From NCBI RefSeq assembly GCF_013344475.1, contig NZ_JABUOU010000007.1:124001-188000 (forward strand): a DNA stretch of 64,000 nucleotides. Reading direction: 5' to 3'. Made by a program: the position numbers and the translations under genes. The notes below the pieces were generated by a model that saw nothing but the letters and a program-made list of their open reading frames with translations, did no database searches and was not told the origin of the DNA. This document shows, piece by piece, positions 25,273 to 41,430 of this stretch (position 1 is its first letter; every line of letters starts with the position of its first letter). The stretch comes from Martelella limonii. GTDB lineage: Bacteria > Pseudomonadota > Alphaproteobacteria > Rhizobiales > Rhizobiaceae.

Positions 25273-25282
25273 CACCTTGTCC

Positions 25283-26563: not shown

Positions 26564-27111
26564 TCGATAATCTCCCCGGCGTCCCCGCCCCGCGAGCCGC
26601 CCACACCGATCGCCGTGTCCGGCGTCTGTGCCGGGGCCTGTCCAGGGGCTATGAGACGGGCGGCCGCGTGCAGCATGAACAGGGCACCGCAGACCGGTAC
26701 CGCGAGATAAAGCACCTCGATCGGCAATTGCAGCGCGGCGGTCCTCTGGCCTCCGGTGCGGATGACATAGGCGATACCCGCCGTCAGCGTTATCCACCCG
26801 AAGAACAGAGCGAGGGCTGCCACCAGCCGATCCGACCAGAGCCTGAGACGCGGGCGGTGCGCCGGTATGGTCTCGATTGCCACATGAAAACCTTCACGCA
26901 GGCCGACGGTCGCATAAAGCAGCACCAGCCACGTGAAGAGGATGATGGCCGCCTCCTCGGTCCAGCTGGGCGGCTTTCCGAGGAAGTAGCGCATCAGAAC
27001 CTGCGTCACCAGCAGGGCGAGCATCACGTAGATGATCCCGACGCAAAGCGTGGCGACGAGCCGCGCGGTAACGCGGCTCGTGGTCTCGATGAGGGCGGCA
27101 AGGCGGCGCAT
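26560..27111 (-). CDS. dctQ: TRAP transporter small permease DctQ
   Basis: 183-residue membrane protein with four predicted helices, the standard DctQ layout. The conserved QVLMRYFLGKPPSWTEEAAI segment and EGFHVAIE (the R-E-G-x-H-V motif) identify the family. Start placed at ATG 27111; an in-frame TTG at 27120 overlaps the dctP stop and is an alternative. It lies between dctP and dctM in the leftward operon. The C-terminal 40 residues are Gly/Pro-rich and probably disordered. Confidence 0.85.
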   Translation of the reverse strand: MRRLAALIETTSRVTARLVATLCVGIIYVMLALLVTQVLMRYFLGKPPSWTEEAAIILFTWLVLLYATVGLREGFHVAIETIPAHRPRLRLWSDRLVAALALFFGWITLTAGIAYVIRTGGQRTAALQLPIEVLYLAVPVCGALFMLHAAARLIAPGQAPAQTPDTAIGVGGSRGGDAGEIIE

Positions 27112-27116
27112 GGGGC

Positions 27117-28133
27117 TCAATTGCCGACGGCTTGCAGCGCGCCGTTCAGGAGGTCCGGGCCGATCGTCGGTTCAAACTGCTTGTAGACCGGGCCGACTTT
27201 CTCGCGAAACGCTGTGACATCGTCGATTTCGTTGATCTCCATGCCCTTTTCCTTCAACGCCGCGACCACCTGGTCTTCAGCCGCAGAGACGGCGGCGCGT
27301 TCGGTCTCGATGGCGGATTTTCCCGCCGCGATCACCGCCTGCTGCACATCCTCAGGCAGCTTGTTGAAGGTGCGCTCGGCCATCAGCAGCTGGATTGCCG
27401 AATAGGTATGGCGCGTGAAGCTCAGGTATTTGGTGACATCGGCATAATTGTTGGAATTGACGACCGAAGTCGGGATCTCGAGCCCGTCAATGGTGCCCTG
27501 CTGCATGGCGGTGAAAACCTCGCCCCAGGCCATCGGCACGGGGCTTCCGCCGAGCGCCGAAAACATCTCGATGAAGACGGGGTTCTGCATTGTGCGGTAC
27601 TTGACGCCTTCGACATCTGCGGGCGTTCGCACTGGCCTGGTGTTGTTGATCATGTTGCGAAATCCGCCTTCGGCCGCCCCGAGAGACACGATCCCGTGCT
27701 TGCCCAGGTTCTCAGCCAGCTGCTGGCCCACCGATCCGTCGAGCACCGTGTGCGCCTGTTCGGCGTTGCCAAAGAGGAAGGGCAGATCGAGGAGCTGATA
27801 GGTCGGCTCCAGATTGGCGACCACCGCATTTGTGATGATGCCCATGTCGATCGTGCCGAATTGCAGCCCTTCGAGGATCTCCTTGTCGTCCCCGAGCTGC
27901 CGGTTGGGAAACAGCGATACCTCGACACGGCCCGGCATGGCGGTCTCGATCGCGTCCTTGAAGGCATGCGCCGTGATGGCATATGGGTCCGTTGGACTGT
28001 CGGCGGTCAGCCAGGCGAGCTTCAGGTTGAATTCCGCCGCGTGGGCAATGCCGACAGGCATGATGGTTGCCGCAGCCAGAGCCGCAGCAGCCACGGTGAC
28101 GCATAAGGCCCGTCGTGTAATGGTCTTGATCAT
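27117..28133 (-). CDS. dctP: TRAP transporter substrate-binding protein DctP
   Basis: 338-residue periplasmic binding protein with a signal peptide (MIKTITRRALCVTVAAAALA, cleavage near AHA-AEF). The carboxylate-binding arginine is in VKYRTMQNP, and EIPTSVVNSNNY follows, as in DctP proteins. It captures an organic acid and delivers it to DctQM. It starts the leftward TRAP operon and is divergent from the deacetylase-fold gene at 28351. Substrate not identifiable; neighbours suggest a sugar acid or a ureide. Confidence 0.92.
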   Translation of the reverse strand: MIKTITRRALCVTVAAAALAAATIMPVGIAHAAEFNLKLAWLTADSPTDPYAITAHAFKDAIETAMPGRVEVSLFPNRQLGDDKEILEGLQFGTIDMGIITNAVVANLEPTYQLLDLPFLFGNAEQAHTVLDGSVGQQLAENLGKHGIVSLGAAEGGFRNMINNTRPVRTPADVEGVKYRTMQNPVFIEMFSALGGSPVPMAWGEVFTAMQQGTIDGLEIPTSVVNSNNYADVTKYLSFTRHTYSAIQLLMAERTFNKLPEDVQQAVIAAGKSAIETERAAVSAAEDQVVAALKEKGMEINEIDDVTAFREKVGPVYKQFEPTIGPDLLNGALQAVGN

Positions 28134-28202
28134 GTCTTCCTCCCTTGATCTCGCCGGTCCCGTGCCGGGAAACTATCAGAACACTACACGAGGGAGACGG
28201 AC

Positions 28203-28240
28203 TGCACGAAATGCATAATCGGCAGTGCCGCATGCACGAA
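28203..28240. promoter_or_regulatory. Direct repeats TGCACGAA 30 bp apart flanking palindrome, dctP/deacetylase control region
   Basis: In the 217-base gap between divergent dctP and the PuuE-like gene, TGCACGAA occurs at 28203-28210 and 28233-28240, exactly 30 bases (about three helical turns) apart. An 11-base palindrome CGGCAGTGCCG at 28220-28230 lies between them. Further TGCATG repeats follow to about 28275. The arrangement looks like a cooperative operator for a regulator controlling both directions; the protein is unknown. Confidence 0.4.
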
Positions 28241-28350
28241 GTTCACCCTACCATTCTGCATGCGGTGCATGTCGCCGTGCAAGGATTGAAGTTCCCGCAT
28301 ATGCGGGCGGCGGTTAAACCTTGAGGCGCAACACGCCAGGAACATCCGCC

Positions 28351-29256
28351 ATGACCGATACCGAAGACAGATACGAGACGATCGCGCTTCCCGCCGATCT
28401 GCTTTGGCCCAAGGGACGGAGGATCGCGGTCGTGTTCAACGTGGCATGGGAGATATGGCGCGACGGCAGGACCTCCGGCGTCGGGCCGATGGGCAATGTG
28501 CTGCCGGGCGGTCTCTTTGATCCCAACGCCGATTCCTACGGTCGCTACAATGCGGCGTCCGGAAGTCGGCGATTGCTCGATATCCTCGAGCGAAACGGGG
28601 TGCGGGCGAGCATTCTGGCCTCGGGACTGGTCGCCGAGCGTCAACCCGAAGCCCTGTCGCGGGCCGCGCGGGCGGGTCACGATATCGTCGGTCACGGGCT
28701 GTCGCAGGACATGCTGTCTCCCATGCTGAGCGCGGAGGACGATCGCGCATCGATCGAGCGCAGCACCGCGGCGATCACGGCGGCGACCGGCGCGCGCCCG
28801 TCGGGCTGGGTCAGTCCGCGTGTCACTTCAGGTCCTTCGGCTCAACGAAGGCTGATGCGGGCCGGATATCGCTGGCATGGCGACGCGCTCGATGCCGACC
28901 GGCCTTATCTGCAGCGGTTCGCCGAGGGCGAAATCCTCGCGATCCCGATGTCGGTCGAATTCAATGACCTGCCCCATGCCATGCGCTTCGGGCGGACGCC
29001 GGGTCAGTTCGTGGATCTCTTCGTGGAAGCCCTTAACGGCATCAAGTCGCAGCCCCCGGAAACGATCATTCTCGACATCTTCGCCCACGGCCATTGCTTC
29101 GGCCGGCCTGCCGCCGCCTGGGCGATCAACGACATCGCAGCCCATTGCTTCGCGGACCCATCTCTCTGGCTGACGACAAGGGCGGAGATTGCAGACCATT
29201 GTTATGCGGCGATGAACGCAAGGCCGACCCAGGCCAGGCACCATATCCACCCATGA
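28351..29256 (+). CDS. Polysaccharide-deacetylase-fold hydrolase, PuuE (allantoinase)-like
   Basis: 301-residue NodB-fold hydrolase. The first motif is degenerate (VVFNVAWEIW instead of the deacetylase D-D), as in PuuE-type ureidohydrolases. The metal His is in DIVGHGLSQDML, the arginine motif is GARPSGWVSPR, and the last motif is IFAHGHCFGRPAA. This points to ring-amide hydrolysis rather than chitin deacetylation. It converges on an M20 N-carbamoyl-type hydrolase, the pair of activities that follow one another in ureide breakdown. The frame opens at 28321 (TTG); ATG 28351 preferred. Confidence 0.82.
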   Translation: MTDTEDRYETIALPADLLWPKGRRIAVVFNVAWEIWRDGRTSGVGPMGNVLPGGLFDPNADSYGRYNAASGSRRLLDILERNGVRASILASGLVAERQPEALSRAARAGHDIVGHGLSQDMLSPMLSAEDDRASIERSTAAITAATGARPSGWVSPRVTSGPSAQRRLMRAGYRWHGDALDADRPYLQRFAEGEILAIPMSVEFNDLPHAMRFGRTPGQFVDLFVEALNGIKSQPPETIILDIFAHGHCFGRPAAAWAINDIAAHCFADPSLWLTTRAEIADHCYAAMNARPTQARHHIHP

Positions 29257-29309
29257 TGCTTGCTCTCATGGACATCAGAGCCCGCAAAACTTGAAGTACC
29301 TCATGAAGG

Positions 29310-30560
29310 TCACAACCGGCTAAGCAATTCCAGCACCGACGTCAGGAACATGCGGGCGCCTGCGATGCTGTCTTCCGGCCTGACGAACTCAGCCTCGTTG
29401 TGGCTCAGGCCGTCGCGGCAGGGAACGAAGATCATGGCAGATGGCGCATGGCCTGCGAGAAACAACGCATCGTGAAAGGCGCCGGAGATCATGGCTCTGG
29501 TCCTGAAACCGCCCTTCTGCGCGGCAATCTGCAATGCGGAGACGACGTCATCGGCAAAGGTGACGGGCGCCATGTCGACGGTCTTGCTGATGGCAACGGT
29601 CACGACTTCCGCTTCGGCCGCTTCCGCCAGCCGTTTGCGGATGCGCGCTTCAAGCCGGTCGAGAACATCGGCTTGCGGGTGGCGAAGGTCGATCGAGCAG
29701 CCGGCCGTCGCCGGAATCGCATTGACGCTGCCCGGCGTCACGGCAATCCGTCCGACCGTGAAGCGGGCCTCGGCGTTTTCGGGCATGATCGTTGCATAAA
29801 GTTCCGCAAGCGCCGCCGTGAGCGCCTTCAGTGGATCGCGCCGGTATTGAAGCGCCGTGGTGCCGGCATGCGCCGTCTGCCCTTCGAAGAGAACCTCCAG
29901 CCAGCGGGTCCCCTGCACGCCGGTGACAATGCCCACGGGGATCTCTTCGCGCTCAAGCGAGGGGCCCTGCTCGATATGGAGCTCGAGATAGGCGGCGACC
30001 GGACATCCGAGCGCGCGATGACCGACATCAGGCGCAAGCGCCGCAATCGTTGCAAGGCGCTCGTCATCGAACAGAGCGCCGTCATCGACCGCGCGCAGCG
30101 CTTCCCATCCGTCCGGGATGCTGCCCTCGACGAAGGCACGCGATCCCATGCAGCCCGGTGCGAAACGGCAGCCTTCCTCGTTGGTCCAGACGACCACTTC
30201 GACCGGCCTCTGCGGCACGACACCGGCATCCGCGAGGCTTTCCAGAACCTCGAAGGCGGTCAGTGTGCCAAGCGCGCCATCGAAACGGCCGCCCGCAGGC
30301 TGGCTGTCGAGATGCGAGCCGATCAGCAAGGGCGGCAGGCTCGGATCGCGACCCTCCATGCGGATGAACAGGTTGGCCATATCGTCCTGAAAGACGGAAA
30401 AGCCGCGCGCTTTGGAAAGCGCCGTCAAAAACGCGCGGGCTTCACGATCGCGGCGTGTCAAGGCCTGCCTGTTCACCCCGCCGCCAGGCGTGGCACCGAT
30501 CGCGGCGAAGGCGTCGAGGCGCGCAAGGAGACGGTCTGCACTGACCTGAGGCGACGTCAT
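29310..30560 (-). CDS. M20-family Zn hydrolase (N-carbamoyl-L-amino-acid / allantoate amidohydrolase type)
   Basis: 416-residue dinuclear metallohydrolase of the hydantoinase/carbamoylase M20 subfamily. Metal ligands: H and D in IGSHLDSQPAGGRFDGA, E-E in WTNEEGCRFAP, H in LELHIEQGP, and the last H in LSHNEAEF. These enzymes remove N-carbamoyl (or related) groups from amino acids or ureido acids. Its start overlaps the end of the tenA-like gene by 4 bases, so the two are translated together. Actual substrate unknown. Confidence 0.9.
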   Translation of the reverse strand: MTSPQVSADRLLARLDAFAAIGATPGGGVNRQALTRRDREARAFLTALSKARGFSVFQDDMANLFIRMEGRDPSLPPLLIGSHLDSQPAGGRFDGALGTLTAFEVLESLADAGVVPQRPVEVVVWTNEEGCRFAPGCMGSRAFVEGSIPDGWEALRAVDDGALFDDERLATIAALAPDVGHRALGCPVAAYLELHIEQGPSLEREEIPVGIVTGVQGTRWLEVLFEGQTAHAGTTALQYRRDPLKALTAALAELYATIMPENAEARFTVGRIAVTPGSVNAIPATAGCSIDLRHPQADVLDRLEARIRKRLAEAAEAEVVTVAISKTVDMAPVTFADDVVSALQIAAQKGGFRTRAMISGAFHDALFLAGHAPSAMIFVPCRDGLSHNEAEFVRPEDSIAGARMFLTSVLELLSRL

Positions 30561-31213
30561 GCCGCCGGTTCCTGTTGATAGGCGGCAGTGTGGAAGTCGA
30601 TCTCGAGCCGCATCGCCTTGCCGAAGACGGCGCTGAGATGCGCCCTCTGGCCTTCACTGAGCGTTTCGCCCGCCTCGTCGAGCCGAACCTTCAGCCATGT
30701 GGCCTGGGCGGCAAAGGCGTCATCGGTGTGAAGCCCCACCCATTCCGCCAGAAGCGGATCGGAAATGCTCTGCTGCGCCGCGTCCTTCGACCACGTCCAA
30801 TACATCCATTCGGCGGCAAACATCGCCGCGACGGTGTCTATGAAACCACCGTCGCGCGCGATTGCGAGCATGCCCTCGCGAAACCGCGCAACGGCCGGAA
30901 CGTTCACGTCGAAGTCCGCCGCATCAATACCGCGAGCGGCAAATGTCCGCTCGAAATAGGTGATCTGGTGGTTTGCGAGGGCATCGAGCACGCCGATCAG
31001 AAAGCGCCGGTCAGCCATGGTCTCGGCCCTTGCCAATGCATAGGCAAAGATCGAGATCGCCGTCTCGACAAAGGCGCCCTCGAATACAAGATAGCGTTCG
31101 AACGCAGCCTTCGGCAGAGTATCGGCCTTGATGTCCTCGACGAAACGGTGCGTGACCATTTCGTCGAACACGGATCTGTTCTCGCGCAGAATGAAGTCGG
31201 AGAGCTTTTCCAT
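30557..31213 (-). CDS. TenA/THI-4-family protein lacking the catalytic cysteine
   Basis: 218-residue all-helical TenA fold protein. The family outline is clear, including AFERYLVFEGAFVETAISIF, HQITYFERTF, and the C-terminal ARLEIDFHTAAY-like segment (MRLEIDFHTAAYQQE). In thiaminase II the nucleophilic Cys sits in a L-P-C-[FY]-W motif; here the equivalent is AMFAAEWMYWTW, with no Cys, and the upstream Asp is Glu. That is the TenA_E pattern, so it may hydrolyse or bind a different amino-pyrimidine-like compound. Cotranscribed between btpA-like and M20 genes. Confidence 0.85.
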   Translation of the reverse strand: MEKLSDFILRENRSVFDEMVTHRFVEDIKADTLPKAAFERYLVFEGAFVETAISIFAYALARAETMADRRFLIGVLDALANHQITYFERTFAARGIDAADFDVNVPAVARFREGMLAIARDGGFIDTVAAMFAAEWMYWTWSKDAAQQSISDPLLAEWVGLHTDDAFAAQATWLKVRLDEAGETLSEGQRAHLSAVFGKAMRLEIDFHTAAYQQEPAA

Positions 31214-31225
31214 CCGGGCGGCCCC

Positions 31226-32071
31226 TCAATCCCGGCCGAGTGCGGGGCGCGCTGCGTCCATGAAGGTCCTGACCCGTTCCGGATCGACCGGGTTCCACCA
31301 CACACCGCCTTCCTTGAGGGAAGAGGCGACGATCACGCCATTGGTGCGGGCTAGGATGTCGCCGATATTGTCCTTGTTGACACCCGAACCGACCATCAAC
31401 GGCAGGTCCGTTGCCGAGCGGACTTCGTCGATCTCCTCGATCGTTGCCGCGTTGCCGGTGCGCTGGCCGGTGGCGATCACCACATCGGCATCGAAGAAGG
31501 CGAGATCGCGGGTCTGTTCGGGAATGGTGCGGTCGGCGGTGATCGCATGGGCACCATGTTTCACATGGCTGTCGGCAAAGACCTTGATGTGTTCGGCGCG
31601 CAACAGCGCACGATAGCGCAGAGCCTCACCGGCGCGGCCTTCCATGAAGCCTTCATTGGCGACATAGGCATTGGCCCACTGGTTGACGCGGATGAAGTGC
31701 GCACCGCCGGCAAGCGCGATCGCAAGCGCCGGGATCGGCGCATTCGCCAGCACATTGATGCCAAGCGGAACGCCGGTTGCCGTCTTGATCCGATCGGTTA
31801 CCACAGACATGAAGGCCGCGGTTTCATGGCCGATGTCCTCCGGCTTGGAAAACGGGATATCGCCGTGATTTTCAATCACCAGTCCGTCGAGGCCACCGCC
31901 GATCAGGGCGTCGGCATCCCGCATGCACGCATCATAGATGCTATCGACCGATGCGCCTCTGTAACGCGGGGAGCCGGGAAAGGACGGGCAATGGATCATG
32001 CCAAGCAGAACCTTGTCAGCCTGAAATATTTCCCGTATGGCGCTTGAAGTTCCATCTGATATTTTCTGCAT
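31226..32071 (-). CDS. BtpA/SgcQ-family TIM-barrel protein
   Basis: 281-residue protein of the BtpA family. Characteristic segments are LLGMIHCPSFPGSPRY, DGLVIENHGDIPF, GINVLANAPIPALAIA, and VATGQRTGNAATIEEI. Family members are TIM barrels of poorly known function: BtpA affects photosystem I stability in cyanobacteria, while SgcQ belongs to a sugar cluster. Here it is the first gene of a leftward operon (btpA-like, tenA-like, M20) and starts 23 bases from the divergent kinase. GGAGAG lies 4 bases upstream of the ATG. Confidence 0.87.
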   Translation of the reverse strand: MQKISDGTSSAIREIFQADKVLLGMIHCPSFPGSPRYRGASVDSIYDACMRDADALIGGGLDGLVIENHGDIPFSKPEDIGHETAAFMSVVTDRIKTATGVPLGINVLANAPIPALAIALAGGAHFIRVNQWANAYVANEGFMEGRAGEALRYRALLRAEHIKVFADSHVKHGAHAITADRTIPEQTRDLAFFDADVVIATGQRTGNAATIEEIDEVRSATDLPLMVGSGVNKDNIGDILARTNGVIVASSLKEGGVWWNPVDPERVRTFMDAARPALGRD

Positions 32072-32094
32072 AAAACTCTCCAGGAAGCTAAAAA
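32072..32094. promoter_or_regulatory. 23-bp head-to-head gap with two opposing ribosome sites
   Basis: The start codons of the BtpA-like gene (minus) and the kinase gene (plus) are separated by only 23 bases. The gap contains GGAGAG on the minus strand for one gene and AGGAAG on the plus strand for the other, overlapping each other. There is no room for promoters, so each transcript must start inside the opposite gene and the two mRNAs must overlap in antisense. Confidence 0.55.
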
Positions 32095-32994
32095 ATGCGT
32101 GCGTTCGTGATTGGTAATGCCGCTATTGACGAAACCATTTCAGTCGACGGGCTACCGGAGCCCGGCGTCTCGATCTTGGGCCGGATCGTAAGCCGCGATC
32201 TGGGCGGCAAAGGCACCAACCAGGCCGTTGTCATGGCCCGTGGCGGCCTTGAAACCACCCTCGTTTCGGCCACCGGCGACGATTTCCGTTCGGCAACGAT
32301 CTGCGAGCAGCTTGCCCAAGAACCGCTTGATGCAAGGCTTTCGCGGCTTTCCGGCATATCGACCGATTTCTCGATGGTGCTGACCACGCCTGACGGCGAG
32401 AACGCGAACGTGACCACCACCGAAGCCGCCGAAGCGCTGCCGCTTGACGTCGCAATGAAGGCGCTTGGCGAAGCAGAGCCCGGCGATTTTCTCGTCATGC
32501 AGGGCAATCTCAACGCCGCAACGACCGAGGCGCTTTTGAAGAGCGGCCGCGAACGCGGCATGGTGACAGTTTTCAACCCGTCGCCCCTTCGCCCGTATTT
32601 CGATCGCCTCTGGCGTTTCATCGACATTGTCTTTCTTAACGAGAGCGAAAGTCTGAGCCTTGCCGGCAGCACCGGACAGACGGCCGCCGAAACCCTTCAT
32701 GGCCTCGGCATTCGCCAGGTCGTGCTGACCGCGGGCACCAACGGCGCCATTTTGAGCACGAGCGGCGGCGACTTCGTCCACGTCCCCGCCGTCAAGGCAA
32801 CGGCCATCGACACCACCGGCGCCGGCGACACTTTCATGGGCGCGGCACTGGCATCGGCCGCCCATCGTGGCGGTGTGCTCGACGCGCGCGCCATTTCCCA
32901 CGCAAGCGCTGCATCTGCACTGACCGTTGCCCGACGCGGAACGCGCCGGGCCTTTCCCAGTCGGGACGAACTTGCGATGATTTTCGCCGGCTAA
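32095..32994 (+). CDS. PfkB-family sugar/nucleoside kinase
   Basis: 299-residue ribokinase-like enzyme. The N-terminal PfkB motif is GGKGTNQAVVMARGG; the catalytic anion-hole motif is TTGAGDTFMGAALA, with the Asp base. NPSPLRPYFD and LNESESLSL are also typical. It phosphorylates a sugar or nucleoside brought in by the neighbouring ribose-type importer, which lacks its own dedicated kinase. It points away from the rest of the locus, alone on the plus strand. Substrate not predictable. Confidence 0.88.
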   Translation: MRAFVIGNAAIDETISVDGLPEPGVSILGRIVSRDLGGKGTNQAVVMARGGLETTLVSATGDDFRSATICEQLAQEPLDARLSRLSGISTDFSMVLTTPDGENANVTTTEAAEALPLDVAMKALGEAEPGDFLVMQGNLNAATTEALLKSGRERGMVTVFNPSPLRPYFDRLWRFIDIVFLNESESLSLAGSTGQTAAETLHGLGIRQVVLTAGTNGAILSTSGGDFVHVPAVKATAIDTTGAGDTFMGAALASAAHRGGVLDARAISHASAASALTVARRGTRRAFPSRDELAMIFAG

Positions 32995-33038
32995 GGGGGT
33001 CGCCGGCGCGTTGGGAATGCAAGTCCGTCCCGGTCTCG

Positions 33039-33809
33039 TCATTCCGTTTCGGCAAGCCAGCCGAGGATGTTCTTCCAAAGCGTGCCATAACCGTCCCATT
33101 CGCAGAAGGCGGGCGAAAGCCAGTGCGGGCCGATATCCGAGGTCCAGACGGCGCTTCTGCCCTTGCCGGCCCGGCCTGTCACCAGCAGCGGATGACCGCC
33201 CTGTTCTTCCGGCAGACGGGCAACCACTTCGATATCGTCGCGTTCGCGCAACTCGACCTCGTTGACGCCGAGCATGACCGGCCAATCACCTGAAATACCC
33301 GCAAGCGTCGGATGATCGGCCAGCAGGATGTCGGGCGTCGTGCCTTCCGGTATTTCCACGCGGTCATCCCACGGTAGGCAGGTCACCGGCAGCACATCCT
33401 CGACGGCGGTCCGCCGCCAGCGCGCCTTGCCGTCTATGCCCTGGAACGAGAAGTAGCCCCCGCACATCAACAGGCCACCGCCCTTTTCTACCCAGGCCTT
33501 GATCAGCTTCAGGCGATTGGGAACAGTCTTCGACTGCTGCCATACGGCGGGCGGCAGAAGCAGCGTGTTGGCGCCGATGTCAGACAGGATGATCACGTCA
33601 TATGTGTCGAGCCCTTCCATCTCGAAGGGAAAGCCGTCCGCAGCCTCGTGGGCGGTCATGTAGGTCAGTTCGAATTCGCTGCCCTTCAGCGCATCGACCA
33701 GCGGCTTGGCACCAAGGTGGAAGTGGACGCTGCCGAACTGGTCGAACCCCTTGTAATGGGTTTCGGAGGTGACCCAGCTTTCACCGACCAGAAGTACTTT
33801 CTTTGTCAT
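33039..33809 (-). CDS. GATase1-like protein (putative glutamine amidotransferase, DUF1355 type)
   Basis: 256-residue class I glutamine amidotransferase-like protein. It starts MTKKVLLVGESWVTSETHYK and has YDVIILSDIGANTL and GGGLLMCGGYFSFQG; the trailing part carries GKGRSAVWTSDIGPHW. This family (often found with sugar importers and ThuA-like proteins) has no firmly established activity. The Cys in LMCGG sits near where a GATase nucleophile lies but the full catalytic triad is not obvious. It is the last gene of the LacI, ABC and phosphotriesterase-like operon, 127 bases after the latter. Confidence 0.75.
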   Translation of the reverse strand: MTKKVLLVGESWVTSETHYKGFDQFGSVHFHLGAKPLVDALKGSEFELTYMTAHEAADGFPFEMEGLDTYDVIILSDIGANTLLLPPAVWQQSKTVPNRLKLIKAWVEKGGGLLMCGGYFSFQGIDGKARWRRTAVEDVLPVTCLPWDDRVEIPEGTTPDILLADHPTLAGISGDWPVMLGVNEVELRERDDIEVVARLPEEQGGHPLLVTGRAGKGRSAVWTSDIGPHWLSPAFCEWDGYGTLWKNILGWLAETE

Positions 33810-33936
33810 TTCAGTCCCGTTTCTGTTCGAATTTCAGAGCAGTTCCGCATTTCACGGAAACCGCGAAACAGCTCCATCTCTTTGTCTTGGCGCATTTTCG
33901 CGATCGTCAGGTGTTTCCACCTGGCCGCGATATGCT

Positions 33937-35013
33937 CTATCGCACGGCGCTGTCGAAAACCGCGCGCGGATTGTCAGTCATGAACCGCACAAGCATTGCC
34001 TGATCAAGCCCGTGGCGGGCGAGGCGCGGCAGAAAGTGGCGCAGCACATAGGCATAGCCGTTGCCGCCATAATGCGTGAGCATCATCTTCAGGAAGACGT
34101 CATGCGACAGGAGAAGACGTCCGCCATGGCCCGCCTCGACCAGCCTGACGATCGCACGGGCACACTCCTCGTCGCTCGGGCACTGCACCTGCTGGTCGGC
34201 ATAGAAGAAATCCATGCCGATCATGTCGTACTCGATAAAGGCACCGCGCGATGCGAGTTCGCTCTGATAGGTGAAATCGTCATGGGAAGGGTTCATGTGG
34301 CAGAGCACGGTATGATTCAGGTCCGCGCCCTCGCCCGCAACCGTATCCAGCACCTCATGGCCGAGGCGGAACCAGCCCGGCAGATGCACCATCAGCGGCA
34401 GGCCGGTGCGGCGCTGAGCCTGGGCTGCGCCGCGCAGAGACTTGCGCTCTGCTTCAGTAAAATCGGCGGAAACGCCGATCTCGCCGATCAGCCCGATCTT
34501 TACGCCCGTGCCGTCAATGCCGGCCGTCGCCTCGTCAACGATCTCGTCGGCAATATCCTTCTCCGACATCGATGCGAGCTTTTCGGGGTGGGAATCCTGC
34601 AGATAATATCCCGCGCCGATGACGATGTTGAGGCCCGTGGCCGCCGAAATGCGCTGCATGGCTTCGGGATTGCGCCCGATGCCCTGGCAGGTGGGTTCGA
34701 CCAGCGTGCGCCCGCCGGCATCGACGAACGGCTTCAGTTCTGAAATCGCGAGCTTCTCATCATCAAGCGTGATGTTGTGCTTGTTGACGAAGGGATCCTG
34801 ACGCAACTCGCTCAGGATCTCCATGCAGACGAAACCGCCAGCGAGGTACTGCCGCTCCGGCGTCCTAGGCGGGTTCCACCAGCATGTGCAGTCATTCAGC
34901 ACATGCTCGTGCATCAATGTCACACCGATATCGGCAGCACTGACCGGCCCGTTGACCGTCATGACCTTGCCGGAGCCCGTATGGGCTTCGGAAAGTTCGG
35001 TTGCAGACATCAT
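33937..35013 (-). CDS. Phosphotriesterase-family metallohydrolase (PHP/lactonase-like)
   Basis: 358-residue TIM-barrel hydrolase. The metal-binding HxH is in TLMHEHVL; the bridging acidic residue is in GLIGEIGVS, where true phosphotriesterases have a carboxylated Lys; histidines follow in MVHLPGWF and LCHMNPSHD; and the final Asp is in LLSHDVFLK. Such PHP-type enzymes are often lactonases in sugar-catabolic operons. The start overlaps the permease stop (ATGATG); GGAGG supports 35013 or 35010. Probably opens a lactone or ester of the imported compound. Confidence 0.88.
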   Translation of the reverse strand: MMSATELSEAHTGSGKVMTVNGPVSAADIGVTLMHEHVLNDCTCWWNPPRTPERQYLAGGFVCMEILSELRQDPFVNKHNITLDDEKLAISELKPFVDAGGRTLVEPTCQGIGRNPEAMQRISAATGLNIVIGAGYYLQDSHPEKLASMSEKDIADEIVDEATAGIDGTGVKIGLIGEIGVSADFTEAERKSLRGAAQAQRRTGLPLMVHLPGWFRLGHEVLDTVAGEGADLNHTVLCHMNPSHDDFTYQSELASRGAFIEYDMIGMDFFYADQQVQCPSDEECARAIVRLVEAGHGGRLLLSHDVFLKMMLTHYGGNGYAYVLRHFLPRLARHGLDQAMLVRFMTDNPRAVFDSAVR

Positions 35014-36017
35014 TTCCCTCCCCTGCTCCGGCGGAAGCTGAAATTCGCGCCGAATATCCGGGTGTTAAGCCAGATCGCCAGAAGAATGATCGCCCCGGTA
35101 ACGATCTGGGTGAAGAACGGCGAGATATGCATCAGGATCAGACCATTTCCGATGACGGCAATGGTCATGGTGCCAAGCACGGTCCCGAGGATGGTGCCGC
35201 GACCGCCCATCAGCGATGTCCCGCCAAGAACCACGGCGGCGATTGCCTGCAGTTCAAACCCGACGGCTGCGTTGGATGAGCCGGAACCGAGGCGCGCTGC
35301 CATCAACAGGCCGGCCAGTCCGCAGGCAAGGCCAGAAAGCACGTAGACCGACATCAGCACGAATCTGGCAGGCATGCCGACGCGGCGTGCCGCCTCCAGA
35401 TTGGAACCGATGGCGACAACCTGGCGACCATAGCGCGTCTTCGAGATTACGATATAGCCGATGATCGCGACGATGACCGCGATGATGGCCGGGAACGGCA
35501 CGCCGAACACTTCACCACGGCCGAGGAACAGAAAACCCTCAACATCGCGGATCGGGATCGAATAGCCTTTGGTGAGATAAAGCGCGAGGCCACGGAAGAT
35601 CGAGAGGCCGGCGAGCGTGACGATGAAGGCGGGAATGCCCTGATAGGAGACGAACCAGCCCTGGAACAGTCCTATGAAGGCTCCGAGCGCCAGCATGGCG
35701 ACGATGGCAAGCGGCCAGGGCATGCCGGCGGCGATGATCATCGCGACCACCGCATTGATGACCGCGATGATCGAGCCCACGGAGAGGTCGATACCGCCGG
35801 TGATGATCACGAAGGTCATGGCGATGGCGACGATCAGGATCGGCGCTGCCTGCCGGATGACATTGAGCAGGTTGCCGGTCGTCAGGAACGTATCGGTGCT
35901 GACCGAGAAGAAGATGAAGCAGACGGCGAAGAAGAAGGCGATGGAGAGCACCTGGGCGTTTTCACCGAGAAAGTCGATGATCGGCGAGCCCTTGGCGCGT
36001 TCGGTATAGGCGCTCAA
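35010..36017 (-). CDS. Ribose-type ABC transporter permease
   Basis: 335-residue RbsC-family inner-membrane permease. Helices alternate with the conserved TGGIDLSVGSIIAVINAV segment, GWFVSYQGIPAFIVTLAGLS, and AVVLGGTSLMGGRGTILGT. It forms the membrane channel of a pentose/nucleoside-type importer. It overlaps both neighbours by 4 bases (ATPase upstream, phosphotriesterase-like downstream), so the operon is tightly packed. Confidence 0.93.
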   Translation of the reverse strand: MSAYTERAKGSPIIDFLGENAQVLSIAFFFAVCFIFFSVSTDTFLTTGNLLNVIRQAAPILIVAIAMTFVIITGGIDLSVGSIIAVINAVVAMIIAAGMPWPLAIVAMLALGAFIGLFQGWFVSYQGIPAFIVTLAGLSIFRGLALYLTKGYSIPIRDVEGFLFLGRGEVFGVPFPAIIAVIVAIIGYIVISKTRYGRQVVAIGSNLEAARRVGMPARFVLMSVYVLSGLACGLAGLLMAARLGSGSSNAAVGFELQAIAAVVLGGTSLMGGRGTILGTVLGTMTIAVIGNGLILMHISPFFTQIVTGAIILLAIWLNTRIFGANFSFRRSRGGK

Positions 36018-36823
36018 TGTCTTTGTCCCCCGACAATGAGTTGGACGAGGTCTTCGAGGCTGGTGTCGCCGATCATGCGTTCGGCAACCTTGGTGCCTTC
36101 ATACATGACGGCAATACGGTCGCAGACACGGAACAGGTCCTGCAGGCGGTGGGTGATCAGGACGACCGAAACACCCTTGGCCTTGACCCGGTTGATCAGG
36201 TTCAGCACGGCTTCCACCTCCGCCACGGCCAGCGCCGAGGTCGGTTCATCCATGATCAGGACTTTCGGCTGGAAGGATGCAGCGCGCGCGATCGCGATCG
36301 CCTGACGCTGACCGCCCGAGAGCTTCTCCACCTTGGCGGAAAGACGCGGAATGCGGATCTCGAGCGCCTCGAGCATGCGCTCGGCCTCAACCGTCATCTT
36401 CTTGCGATCAAGAAACAGGCCACTGGAGATTTCGCGGCCGAGAAACAGATTGCCCACGACATCGATATGGTCACACAGGCTCAGATCCTGGAACACCATT
36501 TCGATGTTGCGATTGCGGGCATCGGCCGGTCCCGACAGCGCGACGGCTTCGCCGCCAATCCTGATCGTGCCGCCGTCTGGAATGTAGGTACCGGAAATGA
36601 TCTTGGTGAGGGTCGATTTCCCTGCGGCATTGTCGCCGACGAGGCCGAGGCACTCGCCGGGATAAAGGTCGAGGTCGACCCCGCGCAGCGCCTGATGCGA
36701 GCCGAAGGTCTTGGTTATGCCGCGAAGGGAAATGGCCGGTTCTTTCGAGGGCCTCTCCGGCGAGCGGAGGGGGGCATCCCCTCCACTGCCGGCGGCACCC
36801 ATTTGCTGGATATCCGACATCAT
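36014..36823 (-). CDS. Ribose-type ABC transporter ATPase (single domain)
   Basis: 269-residue ATPase with one nucleotide-binding domain, in contrast to the two-domain RbsA of the other importer in this window. Walker A is GDNAAGKST, the Q-loop is MVFQDLS, the signature KLSGGQRQA, Walker B VLIMDEPTSAL and the H-loop LITHRLQD. A functional transporter needs a homodimer. Its stop overlaps the permease start; its start overlaps the binding-protein stop by 4 bases. Confidence 0.93.
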   Translation of the reverse strand: MMSDIQQMGAAGSGGDAPLRSPERPSKEPAISLRGITKTFGSHQALRGVDLDLYPGECLGLVGDNAAGKSTLTKIISGTYIPDGGTIRIGGEAVALSGPADARNRNIEMVFQDLSLCDHIDVVGNLFLGREISSGLFLDRKKMTVEAERMLEALEIRIPRLSAKVEKLSGGQRQAIAIARAASFQPKVLIMDEPTSALAVAEVEAVLNLINRVKAKGVSVVLITHRLQDLFRVCDRIAVMYEGTKVAERMIGDTSLEDLVQLIVGGQRH

Positions 36824-37773
36824 TTAAAGATAGCGCGGTAAGGTTCGACATTGGTGTTGTCGACGATCGTGACAGGCACCGAGATCGAAGCTTCGACGGT
36901 CTCGCCGCTGGAGAGATCGTTGAGCGCCTCGACGGCGGCAGCCCCCATCAGCGCCGGATCCTGCTGGATCACGGCGACGACGAAGCCGTCATCGATGCCG
37001 TTGATCGCCTGGGCCGTCAGGTCCCAGCCGAAGATCTTGATGTCGTCCTGCTTGCCCTGGCTTTCGACAGCGGCGATCGCACCCATCAGGGCCGGCTCGC
37101 CAGTGGCGTAAATGGCGGTCAGGTCGGGGTTGGCGGTAATCAGGTTTTCCGCCGCTGCAAGCGCTGTATCCTGCACATTCTGGCCATCCACGACGCCGGC
37201 AAGCTCGATGCCGTCAACACCTTCGATTGCGCCCTGGAAGCCTTCCTGACGCACGTTCTGAATGTAGGAGTTCAAGGCGCCGACGACGCCGACCTTGGCC
37301 TTGCCGCCCATATCCGCCTTCACATAGTCGAGGAAATAGGCGCCGATGTCTGCGCCAGCCTTGGCGTTGTCGACACCGATCTGGGCTTTCTGCGGGCCTT
37401 CAGGCAGGATCGCGTCGATCGCGACAACCGGAATTCCGGCCGCATCGGCCTGCTCGACGGCGGGCATGATACCGTTGACGTCGATCGCAACGACAGCAAG
37501 GCCGTCCACGCCTTCCTGAATGTAGGTTTCGACAGCGTTGTTCTGCATCGCCGGGTCGTTATTGGCATTGTAGATCTGCAGTCCAACGCCGAGTTCCTTC
37601 GCCTTTTCTTCCGCACCGCGATTGATGTCGTTGAAGAACAGGGCCTGCTGGTTGATCTGCACAAGCGCGAACGTCTTGTCAGCGGCGACTGCGCCGGTCG
37701 AAAGGCCGCCTGCCAAAACACCGGCGGCAAGCGCTGTCGAAAGGAGTGTCCTGCGGGAAAATCTGAAAGTCAT
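36820..37773 (-). CDS. Ribose-type ABC transporter periplasmic binding protein
   Basis: 317-residue Peripla_BP_4 protein. A twin-arginine-like start (MTFRFSRRTLLSTALAAGVL) precedes a signal peptide ending near VAA-DKTF. The RR plus hydrophobic core suggests possible Tat export. The ligand domain has YNANNDPAMQNNAVETYIQE and GEPALMGAIAAVESQG, typical of ribose/galactose-type binders. ATG 37773 has GAGGA upstream; the longer frame to 37899 lies across the lacI 3' end and is not coding. First transporter gene after lacI. Confidence 0.92.
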   Translation of the reverse strand: MTFRFSRRTLLSTALAAGVLAGGLSTGAVAADKTFALVQINQQALFFNDINRGAEEKAKELGVGLQIYNANNDPAMQNNAVETYIQEGVDGLAVVAIDVNGIMPAVEQADAAGIPVVAIDAILPEGPQKAQIGVDNAKAGADIGAYFLDYVKADMGGKAKVGVVGALNSYIQNVRQEGFQGAIEGVDGIELAGVVDGQNVQDTALAAAENLITANPDLTAIYATGEPALMGAIAAVESQGKQDDIKIFGWDLTAQAINGIDDGFVVAVIQQDPALMGAAAVEALNDLSSGETVEASISVPVTIVDNTNVEPYRAIFK

Positions 37774-37793
37774 GCGTTCATCCTCTGGCTTGG

Positions 37794-38828
37794 TTATGAG
37801 CGTCGCTTTTTTTCGATCGCCGGCGGCGCGACGGAACTCCGCACGACGATTTCCACGGGCAGCAGTTCTTCCCGTTCGAGGGAGCCGGACTGCTGCCAAT
37901 CGGTTTCAAGAAGAAGAGACAGGGCGCGCGCGCCGATCGAGCGGACCGGCTGGCGCACCGCCGTCAAGGGCGGCGAAAACAGGTGGAGCGGGCCGACATC
38001 GTCGAAACCTATGACCGATACCCGGTCGGGAACGCTGACGCCCTCGGAATAGAGGACCTCGATCATGCCGATCGCGATTTCGTCGGAACTGGCAAAGATC
38101 GCGGTGGCCGGAAGCTTCTCGTCGAGAAAACGCCGCGCCGCATGACGACCGGCCGAAACGGTGTATTCGCCGCAGTAGCGGGTGATCTCGACGTTTTCGC
38201 CAAAACGCTCGCGAAGCCCCTGCTCGAGCCCTGCGTGGCGGCGGGTGGTGGAAATCATCGCTTCGGGTCCACCGACAAAGACCACCTTGTTATGGCCGAA
38301 CTCGGCCAGATGCCGTCCCGCAAGATAGCCGCCCTGGTGATTGTCGCAGAACAGCTTGGGGACCATGGCGCCCGGTACGTCCTCGTCGACGATGACAACC
38401 TTTCCGGTGCGGTTGATCAGGGCTGCAAGCTCGCCATCATCCGGATGGTTGGTGACGAAGATCAGCCCGTCGACGTGGTGATGCTCGATGAGACCGAGAT
38501 ATTTCTTCTCGCGTCCAGGCCGGTTGAGCGTGGCATTGAGCGAGACGGCAAGACCAAGCTTGTCCGCCTCCTCCTCGATCGCGGCGACGAGCATTGCGAA
38601 GAACGGGTTCGAGATATCGGGAATGACGAGTCCGATCATGTCGGAGCGGCCGCGGCTGAGGCGCTGTGCATGCGGGTTCGGAACATAGCCCAGATCGTGG
38701 ATGGCGGTTTCGATGCGCATCCGCGTTTCATCCGGCAGGACCAGTGAGCCGTTCAGGAGACGCGAAATCGTCGCCACGGAAACGCCCGCAGCCTTCGCCA
38801 CATCTTTCAGGCCTGGTGCCTTTGCCAT
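37794..38828 (-). CDS. LacI-family transcriptional regulator
   Basis: 344-residue repressor. N-terminal helix-turn-helix (LKDVAKAAGVSVATISRLLN) and hinge (RLSRGRSDMIGLVIPDISN), then the sugar-binding core (VIGFDDVGPLHLFSPPLTAV). It is the promoter-proximal gene of the leftward operon lacI, binding protein, ATPase, permease, phosphotriesterase-like, GATase1-like, with 20 bases to the transporter genes. The strong tandem operator 45 bases upstream of its start indicates autoregulation and control of the whole operon. Confidence 0.93.
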   Translation of the reverse strand: MAKAPGLKDVAKAAGVSVATISRLLNGSLVLPDETRMRIETAIHDLGYVPNPHAQRLSRGRSDMIGLVIPDISNPFFAMLVAAIEEEADKLGLAVSLNATLNRPGREKKYLGLIEHHHVDGLIFVTNHPDDGELAALINRTGKVVIVDEDVPGAMVPKLFCDNHQGGYLAGRHLAEFGHNKVVFVGGPEAMISTTRRHAGLEQGLRERFGENVEITRYCGEYTVSAGRHAARRFLDEKLPATAIFASSDEIAIGMIEVLYSEGVSVPDRVSVIGFDDVGPLHLFSPPLTAVRQPVRSIGARALSLLLETDWQQSGSLEREELLPVEIVVRSSVAPPAIEKKRRS

Positions 38829-38872
38829 CTCGTTCGCCCTCGGAAGGCCTTTGCGACCTTCTCAGTTTCATT

Positions 38873-38903
38873 TTGTAAAGCGATTTACTAAACCGCTTTA
38901 CAA
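38873..38903. promoter_or_regulatory. Double LacI-type operator upstream of lacI
   Basis: A 31-base near-perfect inverted repeat: 15-base arms around a single central C at 38888, with 14 of 15 positions matching. It resolves into two adjoining LacI-family boxes with central CG: GTAAAGCGATTTAC (38875-38888) and CTAAACCGCTTTAC (38888-38901), sharing one base and offset by 13. Arms begin TTGTAAAGCG and end CGCTTTACAA. It lies about 45 bases before the lacI start, ideal for repression of the operon. Confidence 0.75.
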
Positions 38904-39415: not shown

Positions 39416-40369
39416 TCAGTCGCGCTTCGCCGTCCAGCCCTTGTAGCTGTTGATGTTGTCAGCCGTGATGAGTTCGGGCTCGAGCAGAACGGTGGTCTCC
39501 GCTATCTCCTCGCCGTTGAAGAACTTGTAGCCGAGTTCGAGTGCCTCACCGGCCATCAGATAAGGGTCCTGCGATGCGGAAGCCTTGACCAGCGAATTCG
39601 GGTCCTTCAGCGATTTTTCGGTGTCCGGCGCCCCGTCTACACCGGTAATGATGACATCGCGGCCAAGCTGCCTTGCAGCAAGCTGTGCGCCAAGCGCCAT
39701 CGGGTCATTCGCGCCGAAGACGGCGTCGAGATCGGAATAGCGGGTCAGCAGGCCCTGCATCACGTTCATGCCGCCTTCGCGCGCCGCGCCGCCATTCTGA
39801 TCGTTAGAAACGACATTGATGCCGTCATTGGCCTTGAACACATCCATGCAGCCGGAGAACCGGTCGTTCAGCGACGAAGAGGACGGGCCCTTGATGATGG
39901 CGACATTGCCTTTGCTGTCGAGCGCATCGACAATGTACTGGCAGGCTTTCTTGCCGGCGGCGATATTGTCGGTCATGACCGTGACATCGGCGCCGGGTGC
40001 CGACACGTCGAAGGCCGCAACGGTGATGCCCGCCTTCTTCGCACGCTGTACCGCAGGCGCAATCGCGGTGTCGTCAACCGCATTCAGCATGATGATGTCG
40101 ACGCCCTTCGCGATGAAGCTGTCGATCTGGCTGACCTGCTTGTTGAGGTCGTAGTCGGCGGAGACCGACGTGATTTCAACATCCGGGTTGATCTCGCGGG
40201 CGCGATCCTCAATACCCTTGATGGTCGCGACGAAGAAGGGGTTCCCCAGAAGACCGACGGAAATGCCGATGCTGTTCAAGGGCTTGTCCTCGGCCTGGGC
40301 AGCAAGGCTGCCGGTCGTCAGGGCAAGCGCCGCCGCCCCGGCAAAAAGGATCTTTTTCGAAATACGCAT
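39416..40369 (-). CDS. Ribose-type ABC transporter periplasmic binding protein (second system)
   Basis: 317-residue Peripla_BP_4 protein with a clean signal peptide (MRISKKILFAGAAALALTTG, cleavage after AQA). Ligand-domain motifs include ISVGLLGNPFFVATIKGIED and AVFGANDPMALGAQLAARQL. The chosen ATG at 40369 has GGAGGAAG upstream; the open frame to 40411 is upstream leader. Third gene of the leftward ATPase, permease, binding-protein operon. Sugar specificity unknown. Confidence 0.92.
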   Translation of the reverse strand: MRISKKILFAGAAALALTTGSLAAQAEDKPLNSIGISVGLLGNPFFVATIKGIEDRAREINPDVEITSVSADYDLNKQVSQIDSFIAKGVDIIMLNAVDDTAIAPAVQRAKKAGITVAAFDVSAPGADVTVMTDNIAAGKKACQYIVDALDSKGNVAIIKGPSSSSLNDRFSGCMDVFKANDGINVVSNDQNGGAAREGGMNVMQGLLTRYSDLDAVFGANDPMALGAQLAARQLGRDVIITGVDGAPDTEKSLKDPNSLVKASASQDPYLMAGEALELGYKFFNGEEIAETTVLLEPELITADNINSYKGWTAKRD

Positions 40370-40414
40370 GTAGTCTTCCTCCACTTTGGTTTTCTTCGGG
40401 TTTTCGGGCACGGG

Positions 40415-41398: not shown

Positions 41399-41430
41399 AC
41401 TCGTCTCCCTGGCCCTACGGCCTTCCCTCT

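What the first reader, a model, noticed from the sequence alone, without database searches (positions are those of the whole stretch)
28203..38903. Unusual catabolic locus: PuuE-like, carbamoylase-type M20, Cys-less TenA, BtpA, PfkB kinase, phosphotriesterase-like and ribose-type ABC
Seen: a contiguous set of enzyme families rarely described together. Known: PuuE opens ureide rings, M20 carbamoylases remove N-carbamoyl groups, TenA acts on amino-pyrimidines, PfkB phosphorylates sugars or nucleosides, PTE-like enzymes are often lactonases. Inference: the locus may break down an imported nucleoside- or ureide-like compound, with the ring and sugar handled by separate branches. This is the best candidate for an undescribed pathway in the window.
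Basis: partly seen in the sequence, partly recalled or inferred. Interest (0 to 1): 0.72.

Follow-up and report, generated by a model that had tools for sequence, protein, structure and literature searches.

The report
Conserved LacI-controlled riboside-type catabolic operon
Ten neighbouring genes form a bacterial operon, shared by many relatives, that seems to import and dismantle a still unknown ribose-like compound with nitrogen-carbon bonds; a cousin cluster in Salmonella was described as unsolved in 2026.

Summary
The order recurs in 6 of 12 other genomes of the genus; 77 of 80 related loci keep an ABC-PTE-GAT-BtpA core, all with PfkB. TenA and M20 vary. The PuuE-like gene occurs in 0 of 80. 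A tandem LacI-type operator precedes lacI in 71 of 80. So this is a dedicated catabolic operon, not thiamin salvage.

Most likely it imports a riboside-like compound: PfkB phosphorylates the pentose, BtpA (predicted phosphate-binding TIM barrel, beside a sugar kinase in 10 of 11 other BtpA loci fetched) processes the sugar phosphate, and PTE, M20 and TenA cut C-N bonds. No substrate is known. The PTE keeps the metal-site residues of mammalian PTER, an amide hydrolase, but its pocket differs, identically in 10 of 10 sequences compared (window included, down to 37% identity). Closest published case: Salmonella STM3547-3550, with GAT and the PTE type in common, unsolved.

The parts
38876..38900 (.). 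Tandem LacI-type operator, two copies of TAAANCGNTTTA with starts 13 bp apart, 47 nt upstream of lacI
   Evidence: 2 matches in the window, both exact; shuffles at up to 1 mismatch: mean 0.23, 4 of 100 with at least 2; 4 sites in the whole genome, 2 of them here; reversed-pattern control 5; exact pair in 71 of 80 homologous loci, at least one site in 75 of 80, none outside the stretch before lacI, in 1,631,075 bases
37794..38828 (-). LacI-family regulator, nearest NCBIfam models RbsR (224.8 bits, cut-off 382) and CytR (199.9, cut-off 436), both below cut-off
   Evidence: match in 76 of 80 loci
36820..37773 (-). Periplasmic binding protein, Peripla_BP_4; best solved relative by sequence 5hsg (389 bits)
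   Evidence: match in 77 of 80 loci
36014..36823 (-). ABC ATP-binding protein, 269 aa, a single-domain length; overlaps its neighbours by 4 nt
   Evidence: match in 80 of 80 loci, a count that includes ABC proteins of other transporters
35010..36017 (-). ABC permease
   Evidence: match in 78 of 80 loci
33937..35013 (-). PTE-family metal hydrolase of the 3k2g / Pmi1525 group; metal-site residues H35, H37, E178, H210, H239, D305; pocket G213, P242, F307
   Evidence: match in 77 of 80 loci
33039..33809 (-).
   Evidence: 80 of 80 loci, but it was the query
32095..32994 (+). PfkB kinase, ribokinase-like (184.6 bits against 299.65 cut-off); divergent from BtpA with a 23-nt gap; best solved relative 3i3y/3ikh
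   Evidence: opposite strand in 61 of 77 core loci, in line in 16
31226..32071 (-). BtpA/SgcQ family protein; predicted phosphate-binding TIM barrel
   Evidence: match in 80 of 80 loci; a sugar kinase adjoins BtpA in 10 of 11 other BtpA loci fetched
30557..31213 (-). TenA of the Cys-less type (Ala134-Glu135); overlaps the M20 gene by 4 nt
   Evidence: match in 65 of 80 loci
29310..30560 (-). M20 hydantoinase/carbamoylase-family amidohydrolase
   Evidence: any match in 46 of 80 loci, full length in 43 of 77 core loci
28351..29256 (+). Polysaccharide-deacetylase-family (PuuE-like) gene, judged NOT part of the unit
   Evidence: below the PuuE cut-off and without a match in the 6 and 80 homologous loci examined

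Best explanation
It is one LacI-controlled catabolic operon for an imported riboside-like compound, a ribose or ribose-like sugar joined to a nitrogen-bearing group. Shown here: the gene set, its conservation, its own conserved operator-like pair, the protein families, the metal-site residues of the PTE. Inferred: the binding protein and ABC import the compound; the PTE-like metal enzyme and, depending on lineage, M20 and/or TenA hydrolyse C-N (amide, carbamoyl or amine) bonds of the non-sugar part; PfkB phosphorylates the pentose at O5; BtpA, a phosphate-binding TIM barrel, acts on that sugar phosphate (cleavage or isomerisation at C1) and feeds the pentose phosphate pathway; the GAT protein does a conserved but unassigned step on the same compound. 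The compound or a product relieves LacI.
For: Conserved order and co-occurrence. Operator pair. 4-nt gene overlaps. Kinase is ribokinase-like, nearest to solved 3i3y/3ikh; a GAT/PTE-linked PfkB in Salmonella, RikA, phosphorylates ribose (PMC13432705, abstract and passages), though a RikA-like kinase is only 26% identical to ours. A sugar kinase adjoins BtpA in 10 of 11 other BtpA loci fetched: FGGY in 8 (7 of them one close group), PfkB in 2; the BtpA model matches sugar-phosphate/nucleotide barrels such as ThiE, ribulose-phosphate epimerase, TrpA, HisF, TrpF, OMP decarboxylase. PTE keeps the PTER residues said to touch the metal (H26, H28, E169) and three further ones recalled as ligands of the family. 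Amide-type hydrolases stand by GAT together with different transporters in 8 of 10 plasmid contexts and 5 of 6 further chromosomal ones. Nucleoside genes (Bmp binding protein, nucleoside hydrolase, cytidine and adenine deaminase) lie by GAT in L172; a nucleoside hydrolase lies about 8 kb from BtpA in L148.
Against: No ligand, product or phenotype is known for any gene here. The nucleoside link rests on two distant loci. Some contexts point elsewhere: a fructosamine-type locus on a Ti plasmid, peptide-type transporters with gamma-glutamyltransferase; no PfkB-type kinase is annotated in 4 of 10 plasmid contexts nor found in 4 of 6 chromosomal ones. TenA is absent from 12 and full-length M20 from 34 of 77 core loci, so neither is essential. 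The BtpA model is of moderate confidence (pLDDT 78.7, some loops below 50) and its fold matches are loose (11-18% identity, TM 0.48-0.59 by the query's length, 68, 74). Hydrolysis of a lactone by the PTE is not excluded.
Confidence: 0.45

Rival explanations
1. Sugar-amino-acid conjugate pathway: the substrate is an opine- or Amadori-like compound, an amino acid or peptide linked to a pentose or ketose. Amide hydrolases free the amino acid; PfkB and BtpA handle the sugar, as fructoselysine and fructose-asparagine systems do (that comparison is recalled).
For: BtpA-PfkB-GAT with a dipeptide/glutathione-type ABC in L107, L109 and L119, and a gamma-glutamyltransferase after GAT in 2 of these 3; oligopeptide ABC in L151; ribokinase, TenA, gamma-glutamyltransferase, peptide ABC and GAT in L163; GAT near oxoprolinase, SIS protein and fructoselysine 6-kinase on pTiK224; SIS-PfkB-BtpA in L185; peptidases beside GAT.
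Against: The window operon shows no SIS protein and its binding protein is of a sugar-binding family; its kinase scores 184.6 bits for ribokinase against 40.6 for fructoselysine 6-kinase.
Confidence: 0.25
2. Simple pentose (ribose-type) utilisation operon in which PTE is a sugar lactonase and M20, TenA and GAT are passengers or minor side enzymes.
Against: PTE is kept in 77 of 80 GAT loci, and TenA or full-length M20 or both in 76 of 77 core loci; the PTE carries the PTER-type metal residues with Glu178 (114).
Confidence: 0.12
3. Thiamin-pyrimidine salvage variant: M20 deformylates and TenA deaminates an aminopyrimidine, PfkB stands in for ThiD and BtpA for ThiE.
For: TenA model nearest to true TenA structures, the top one with HMP bound; BtpA model's top match is ThiE; TenA with an M20 of ArgE/DapE type in L137.
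Against: No Rfam match, hence no TPP riboswitch, in the window although the genome has 4; LacI-type operator pair instead. Pocket residues changed and invariant in 22 sequences: Cys to Ala134, Asp to Glu45, Tyr to His162. Kinase is ribokinase-like. TenA missing in 12 of 77 core loci.
Confidence: 0.07
4. Uptake and breakdown of an amine- or acyl-modified compound with no sugar at all, for example an N-acyl amine as for PTER, with PfkB acting on a non-sugar alcohol.
For: PTER hydrolyses N-acetyltaurine (PMC11374699, passages); GAT beside a nitrilase-family gene in L155 and near carbamoylase and hydantoinase genes in L164, both without an annotated kinase.
Against: PTER residues R204, R233 and H300 (placed at the substrate by docking) are Gly, Pro and Phe here and in 9 of 9 relatives compared; binding protein, regulator and kinase are all of sugar families.
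Confidence: 0.08

Closest known systems
Salmonella rikA cluster STM3547-STM3550 (PfkB ribose kinase, GAT, DMT transporter, PTE), PMC13432705
   Same: A like cluster on an E. albertii plasmid has a GAT 44% identical to ours and a PTE of the same pocket type (39%) with a PfkB kinase; [quoted passage not shown]
   Different: DMT transporter instead of ABC importer; no BtpA, TenA or M20 reported; the E. albertii kinase is only 26% identical to ours. The Salmonella sequences themselves were not read here, except the solved GAT relatives.
Solved proteins 5hsg (binding protein) and 3i3y/3ikh (carbohydrate kinase)
   Same: Best solved relatives of SBP (389 bits) and PfkB (237 bits). That both come from Klebsiella, and that 3i3y holds ribose, is recalled.
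   Different: No pathway was found in print for 5hsg (3i3y was not searched for); their home locus was not read. Pantoea dispersa and the unnamed L136-L138 show a comparable gene set with another M20 beside GAT.
Mammalian PTER, N-acetyltaurine hydrolase (PMC11374699)
   Same: Same PTE subgroup (9efa, 'phosphotriesterase-related protein', 210 bits), all six metal-site residues.
   Different: Three substrate-side residues replaced.
TenA, Cys-less type (thiamin breakdown-product salvage, recalled)
   Same: Fold; Tyr138 and Glu204 kept.
   Different: Other pocket residues changed; no TPP control.
E. coli SgcQ (sgc operon) and BtpA 'photosystem I biogenesis' protein
   Same: BtpA/SgcQ family (TIGR00259 219 bits against 153.4).
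   Different: Below the photosystem equivalog (196.7 against 400); kinase-linked here, PTS-linked in sgc (the sgc make-up is recalled).

Membership tests
PuuE allantoinase | Score above the curated equivalog cut-off and linkage to the operon | tested here: not met
   82.8 bits against 424.6; 0 of 80 loci
rikA-type cluster (PfkB, GAT, DMT, PTE) | GAT of PF07090 | tested here: met
rikA-type cluster (PfkB, GAT, DMT, PTE) | PTE with the shared pocket signature | tested here: met
   10 of 10 sequences, window included, share six metal-site residues and G/P/F
rikA-type cluster (PfkB, GAT, DMT, PTE) | DMT transporter | tested here: not met
   ABC importer instead
rikA-type cluster (PfkB, GAT, DMT, PTE) | Ribose kinase activity of the PfkB | not testable with these tools
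   Only 26% identical to the RikA-like kinase of E. albertii
PTER N-acetyltaurine hydrolase | Metal-site residues | tested here: met
   H35, H37, E178, H210, H239, D305; H26, H28, E169 of PTER named in the paper, the other three recalled as ligands
PTER N-acetyltaurine hydrolase | R204, R233, H300 at the substrate | tested here: not met
   Gly213, Pro242, Phe307, mapped by counting from E169 along the alignment; roles by docking in PMC11374699
TenA thiamin salvage | Cys of the TenA_C type, or TPP control | tested here: not met
   Ala134; no Rfam match in the window. Cys-less TenA proteins can also salvage (recalled), so this lowers rather than excludes the role
Hydantoinase/carbamoylase M20 | TIGR01879 above cut-off | tested here: met
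   374.3 against 204; the substrate is not implied
Ribokinase RbsK | TIGR02152 above cut-off | tested here: not met
   184.6 against 299.65
BtpA/SgcQ family | PF03437 and TIGR00259 above cut-off | tested here: met
   232.8 and 219 bits

The most novel reading that the evidence does not exclude
The operon degrades a modified or damaged ribonucleoside (for example a ring-opened, reduced or formylated base on ribose): PTE, M20 and TenA dismantle the base in stages while still or after being joined to ribose, and PfkB then BtpA make and split the nucleoside 5-phosphate. BtpA, annotated as a photosystem biogenesis factor, would be a sugar-phosphate enzyme that works just after sugar kinases across bacteria, and the Salmonella rikA cluster would be a short form of the same pathway.
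Probability: 0.2. Interest if true: 0.75.

Novelty: new variant of a known kind. Interest (0 to 1): 0.54.

Why it matters
One operon links four poorly assigned families, BtpA, PF07090 GATase1-like, non-thiamin TenA and bacterial PTER-like hydrolases, to one unknown substrate, in Rhizobiaceae and, in related form, in Pantoea. In R. leguminosarum 3841 the GAT (taken to be pRL90221 by name, mass and position) is reported in proteomics of pea-nodule bacteroids (PMC7900000, PMC7105596, passages), so the operon is probably expressed in symbiosis. Finding one ligand would give functions to all of these families and a lead for the Salmonella rikA cluster, stated in print to be unsolved.

Tried and rejected
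Rejected: PuuE as a member. Thiamin salvage as the main role. TRAP/LysR genes left of the unit as members: DctM and DctP matches in 3 of 80 loci each, LysR in 2. The neighbouring second ribose-type ABC (39416-42957) as a member: best-in-place ABCa2 matches in 15 and ABCp2 in 3 of 80 loci, SBP2 in none. The rhizosphere mutant pRL90234 (PMC4495286, passages) as a phenotype of this operon: by gene number it should lie outside it, and its transductant showed no significant defect.

Led nowhere: literature searches for the family set (0 papers each); a BtpA/SgcQ search swamped by Brucella effectors and SgcQ alone with no paper on its function in the listing; a TenA_E search; the LacI regulon survey PMC4052901 (passages), whose main text has no phosphotriesterase, TenA or ribokinase. 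That the pathway is undescribed rests only, in an open-access library.

Limits: the 80 loci are the best 80 of 399 relatives found with GAT as query and are mostly Rhizobiaceae, so counts are not independent and GAT presence is by construction; operator counts share that kinship. In 'present' means any tblastn match at 1e-10; one search uses at least 45% identity, and its core is defined by SBP, ABC, PTE, GAT and BtpA, so those are present in the 77 by definition. The ten plasmid GAT contexts were chosen by hand from 60 listed of 192 records, and the genes there are named by the depositors. Rows dropped: L084, L066, L064 and L088 from the BtpA alignment and L097, L064, L082 and L085 from the TenA alignment after stop-codon errors; L056 and three loci not from the search for related loci left out of A4 for the fold job. 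Recalled, from no call: that the TenA Cys is catalytic, metal-ligand roles other than those in PMC11374699, the sgc operon make-up, the source organism of 5hsg and 3i3y and the ligand of 3i3y.

Full report
OBSERVATION. The unit, read on the minus strand from lacI, is LacI 37794-38828, binding protein 36820-37773, ATPase 36014-36823, permease 35010-36017, PTE 33937-35013, GAT 33039-33809, [PfkB 32095-32994 on the plus strand], BtpA 31226-32071, TenA 30557-31213, M20 29310-30560. Binding protein and ATPase, ATPase and permease, permease and PTE overlap by 4 nt, as do TenA and M20. The PuuE-like gene at 28351-29256 scores 82.8 bits against a PuuE cut-off of 424.6.

CONSERVATION. TenA relatives at 81-89% identity occur in 6 of 12 other genomes of the genus, and GAT relatives at 90-97% in the same 6 and no other of the 12. 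In all 6 the order LacI to M20, including the inverted PfkB, is the same, and no PuuE or LysR match appears; TRAP-like matches appear in 1 of 6, on the other side of the unit. In four genomes of other genera of the family the order M20-BtpA-PfkB-GAT-PTE-ABC-SBP holds without TenA; one of them is cut by a contig end inside PTE. A scan of one genome each for 84,980 species with the GAT alignment gave 399 confirmed relatives, of which the best 80 were kept; records name Martelella, Rhizobium, Agrobacterium, Ensifer, Phyllobacterium, Roseibium and others. Matches to window proteins in these 80: BtpA 80, ABC ATPase 80, GAT 80 (query), PfkB 80, permease 78, PTE 77, binding protein 77, LacI 76, TenA 65, M20 46, DctM 3, DctP 3, LysR 2, PuuE 0. 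At 45% identity or more, 77 of 80 carry the SBP-ABC-PTE-GAT-BtpA core, all 77 with PfkB; among these 77, TenA with full M20 32, TenA with an M20 fragment 3, TenA without M20 30, M20 without TenA 11, neither 1. The other 3 of 80 (L107, L109, L119) are a different type with BtpA, PfkB, GAT, a GntR-like gene and a dipeptide/glutathione-type ABC (binding protein best GsiB, 217.7 bits against 594, scanned in L109 only), with a gamma-glutamyltransferase-family ORF after GAT in L107 and L109, none found in L119. PfkB lies on the opposite strand in 61 and in line in 16 of the 77.

In an even sample of 398 genomes of the phylum, strong matches to SBP fall in 10, BtpA in 11, GAT in 16, own genome included; SBP and BtpA share 9, and all SBP and all BtpA genomes are in the GAT set (P values, without correction for kinship). 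In G256 the BtpA and GAT lie on different contigs. Three loci of another family of the phylum (L136-L138, unnamed, probably enterobacterial) have the set with another M20-like ORF after GAT; the one scanned (L137) just reaches the ArgE/DapE subfamily cut-off (218.2 against 217.6), and TenA is present in 2 of the 3. Pantoea dispersa has TenA and an M20 metallopeptidase beside GAT.

CONTROL REGION. The stretch before lacI holds two TAAANCGNTTTA sites 13 bp apart at 38876 and 38889; 4 of 100 shuffles of the window gave two or more matches at up to one mismatch, so the window alone would not prove them. Conservation does: an exact pair at that spacing is in 71 of 80 loci, at least one site in 75 of 80, and none lies outside the stretch before lacI in 1,631,075 bases of these loci. 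The own genome, 4.54 Mb, has 4 sites in all, 2 of them here; the reversed control pattern has 5 matches, so the two other sites look like chance and the regulon is probably this operon alone. Four TPP riboswitches exist in the genome, none in the window.

THE PARTS. PTE: best solved relatives are 3k2g (552 bits), Pmi1525 3rhg/4qsf (234), 9efa, named phosphotriesterase-related protein (210), then PHP (128). PTER was shown in 2024 to hydrolyse N-acetyltaurine, and its authors found 3k2g as the top structural match of its model (PMC11374699, passages read). Our protein keeps the PTER residues said there to touch the metal (H26, H28, E169) and three more that I recall as ligands of the family; the three residues placed at the substrate by docking (R204, R233, H300; mapped by counting from E169 on the alignment) are Gly213, Pro242 and Phe307, and the same in 9 of 9 GAT-linked PTEs compared, from 77% down to 37% identity, including the E. 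albertii and Streptomyces forms with a DMT transporter. So this looks like one specificity group, and probably not N-acetyltaurine.

TenA: model pLDDT 94.9, nearest folds are TenA proteins including HMP complexes. Across 22 sequences the position of the H. pylori Cys is Ala134 with Glu135 next to it, the Asp aligned in H. pylori TenA is Glu45, a Tyr is His162, while Tyr138 and Glu204 stay. BtpA: no clear solved relative by sequence, best E 0.015; the AlphaFold model (pLDDT 78.7, with some loops below 50) matches phosphate-binding TIM barrels at 11-18% identity. In 190 genomes of the class, 10 hold BtpA-family matches at 1e-20, 12 places; 11 regions were fetched, the own operon being the twelfth place. 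In 10 of 11 a sugar kinase gene adjoins BtpA: FGGY in 8, PfkB in 2; the eleventh (L184) has only a partial BtpA and none was found. Seven of the FGGY kinases are at least 49% identical to one of them, so they count as about one event; with the separate FGGY and the PfkB cases there are still three kinase types. This points to BtpA acting on a freshly phosphorylated sugar.

GAT contexts. Ten plasmid contexts, chosen by hand from 60 listed of 192 records, 8 or 10 kb either side, names as annotated: a PfkB-type kinase (PfkB, ribokinase, fructoselysine 6-kinase) in 6 of 10; an amide-type hydrolase in 8 of 10 (nitrilase family, M24, M20, PTE, proline iminopeptidase family, oxoprolinase, PIG-L deacetylase, gamma-glutamyltransferase, carbamoylase); transporters of at least five kinds. 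Six more chromosomal contexts, the remaining GAT places of the 398-genome sample: PfkB in 2 of 6, M20 or creatininase in 5 of 6, and in L172 a Bmp nucleoside-type binding protein, nucleoside hydrolase, cytidine deaminase, creatininase-family protein and adenine deaminase round GAT. L148 has nucleoside hydrolase, PfkB, amidohydrolase and BtpA in about 10 kb. The picture is a module, GAT often with a kinase, with or without BtpA, to which different C-N hydrolases and importers are attached.

LITERATURE. The nearest report is PMC13432705 (outline with abstract and four passages read): STM3547 is a PfkB ribose kinase, RikA; [quoted passage not shown] The window operon shares GAT and PTE type with an E. 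albertii cluster of that make-up but has a different importer and adds BtpA, TenA and M20; the kinases are only 26% identical. In R. leguminosarum 3841 the operon is on pRL9; pRL90221, 'putative glutamine amidotransferase' of 28.31 kDa, is listed as changed in pea-nodule bacteroids of gpxA (ratio 0.71) and gmcA (given as -0.72) mutants (PMC7900000, PMC7105596, passages). That pRL90221 is this GAT is inferred from name, mass and position.

MECHANISM. Shown: gene set, order, operator pair, families, metal-site residues. Inferred: import of a riboside-like compound; phosphorylation by PfkB; action of BtpA on the phosphate; C-N hydrolysis by PTE, M20 and TenA; GAT step unknown. That 76 of 77 core loci keep TenA or full-length M20 or both, and that other lineages put another M20 type beside GAT, suggests that these enzymes trim parts of the nitrogen side that differ between lineages or natural variants of the substrate, while PTE, GAT, PfkB and BtpA deal with the common core. 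The glyco-amino-acid rival is serious because of the gamma-glutamyltransferase and peptide-transporter forms and the Ti-plasmid locus.

VERDICT. It is a new variant of a cluster type already flagged as unsolved, not a new kind of system.

Noticed in passing
window 32071-32095 and 32095-32994: PfkB lies on the opposite strand inside the operon, divergent from BtpA with only 23 nt between them; PfkB is on the opposite strand in 61 of 77 core loci. BtpA-TenA-M20 must be transcribed across PfkB in antisense or from a promoter inside it; a possible conserved noncontiguous operon.
   Followed up: partly
G000:C1:523384-524148 (L175): The same genome has a second BtpA-family gene next to an FGGY carbohydrate kinase, with a DeoR-like ORF and an ABC transporter near.
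   Followed up: partly
window 24358-29256: A LysR regulator, a TRAP transporter and the polysaccharide-deacetylase-like gene lie left of the operon and look like a separate unit.
   Followed up: no
window 39416-42957: A second, separate ribose-type ABC importer (binding protein, permease, double-length ATPase) sits directly upstream of the operon.
   Followed up: no
L149:20598-20609: In Pantoea dispersa a further exact operator match lies 21 nt before a gene annotated as aminoimidazole riboside kinase; it may be a fructokinase of a sucrose operon with a similar operator.
   Followed up: no
L077, L105, L129 and L169-L171: A paralogous module, GAT with a second sugar-type ABC and (in L169-L171, and begun at the end of L077) an ArgE/DapE-like M20, with a kinase match in L077, L105, L129 and L169, sits beside the operon in some Rhizobium loci and alone in others.
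   Followed up: partly
L075:13239-13536, L095:13240-14452: M20 is present only as fragments or split in 3 of 77 core loci (L075, L095, L131), which suggests loss or sequence errors.
   Followed up: no
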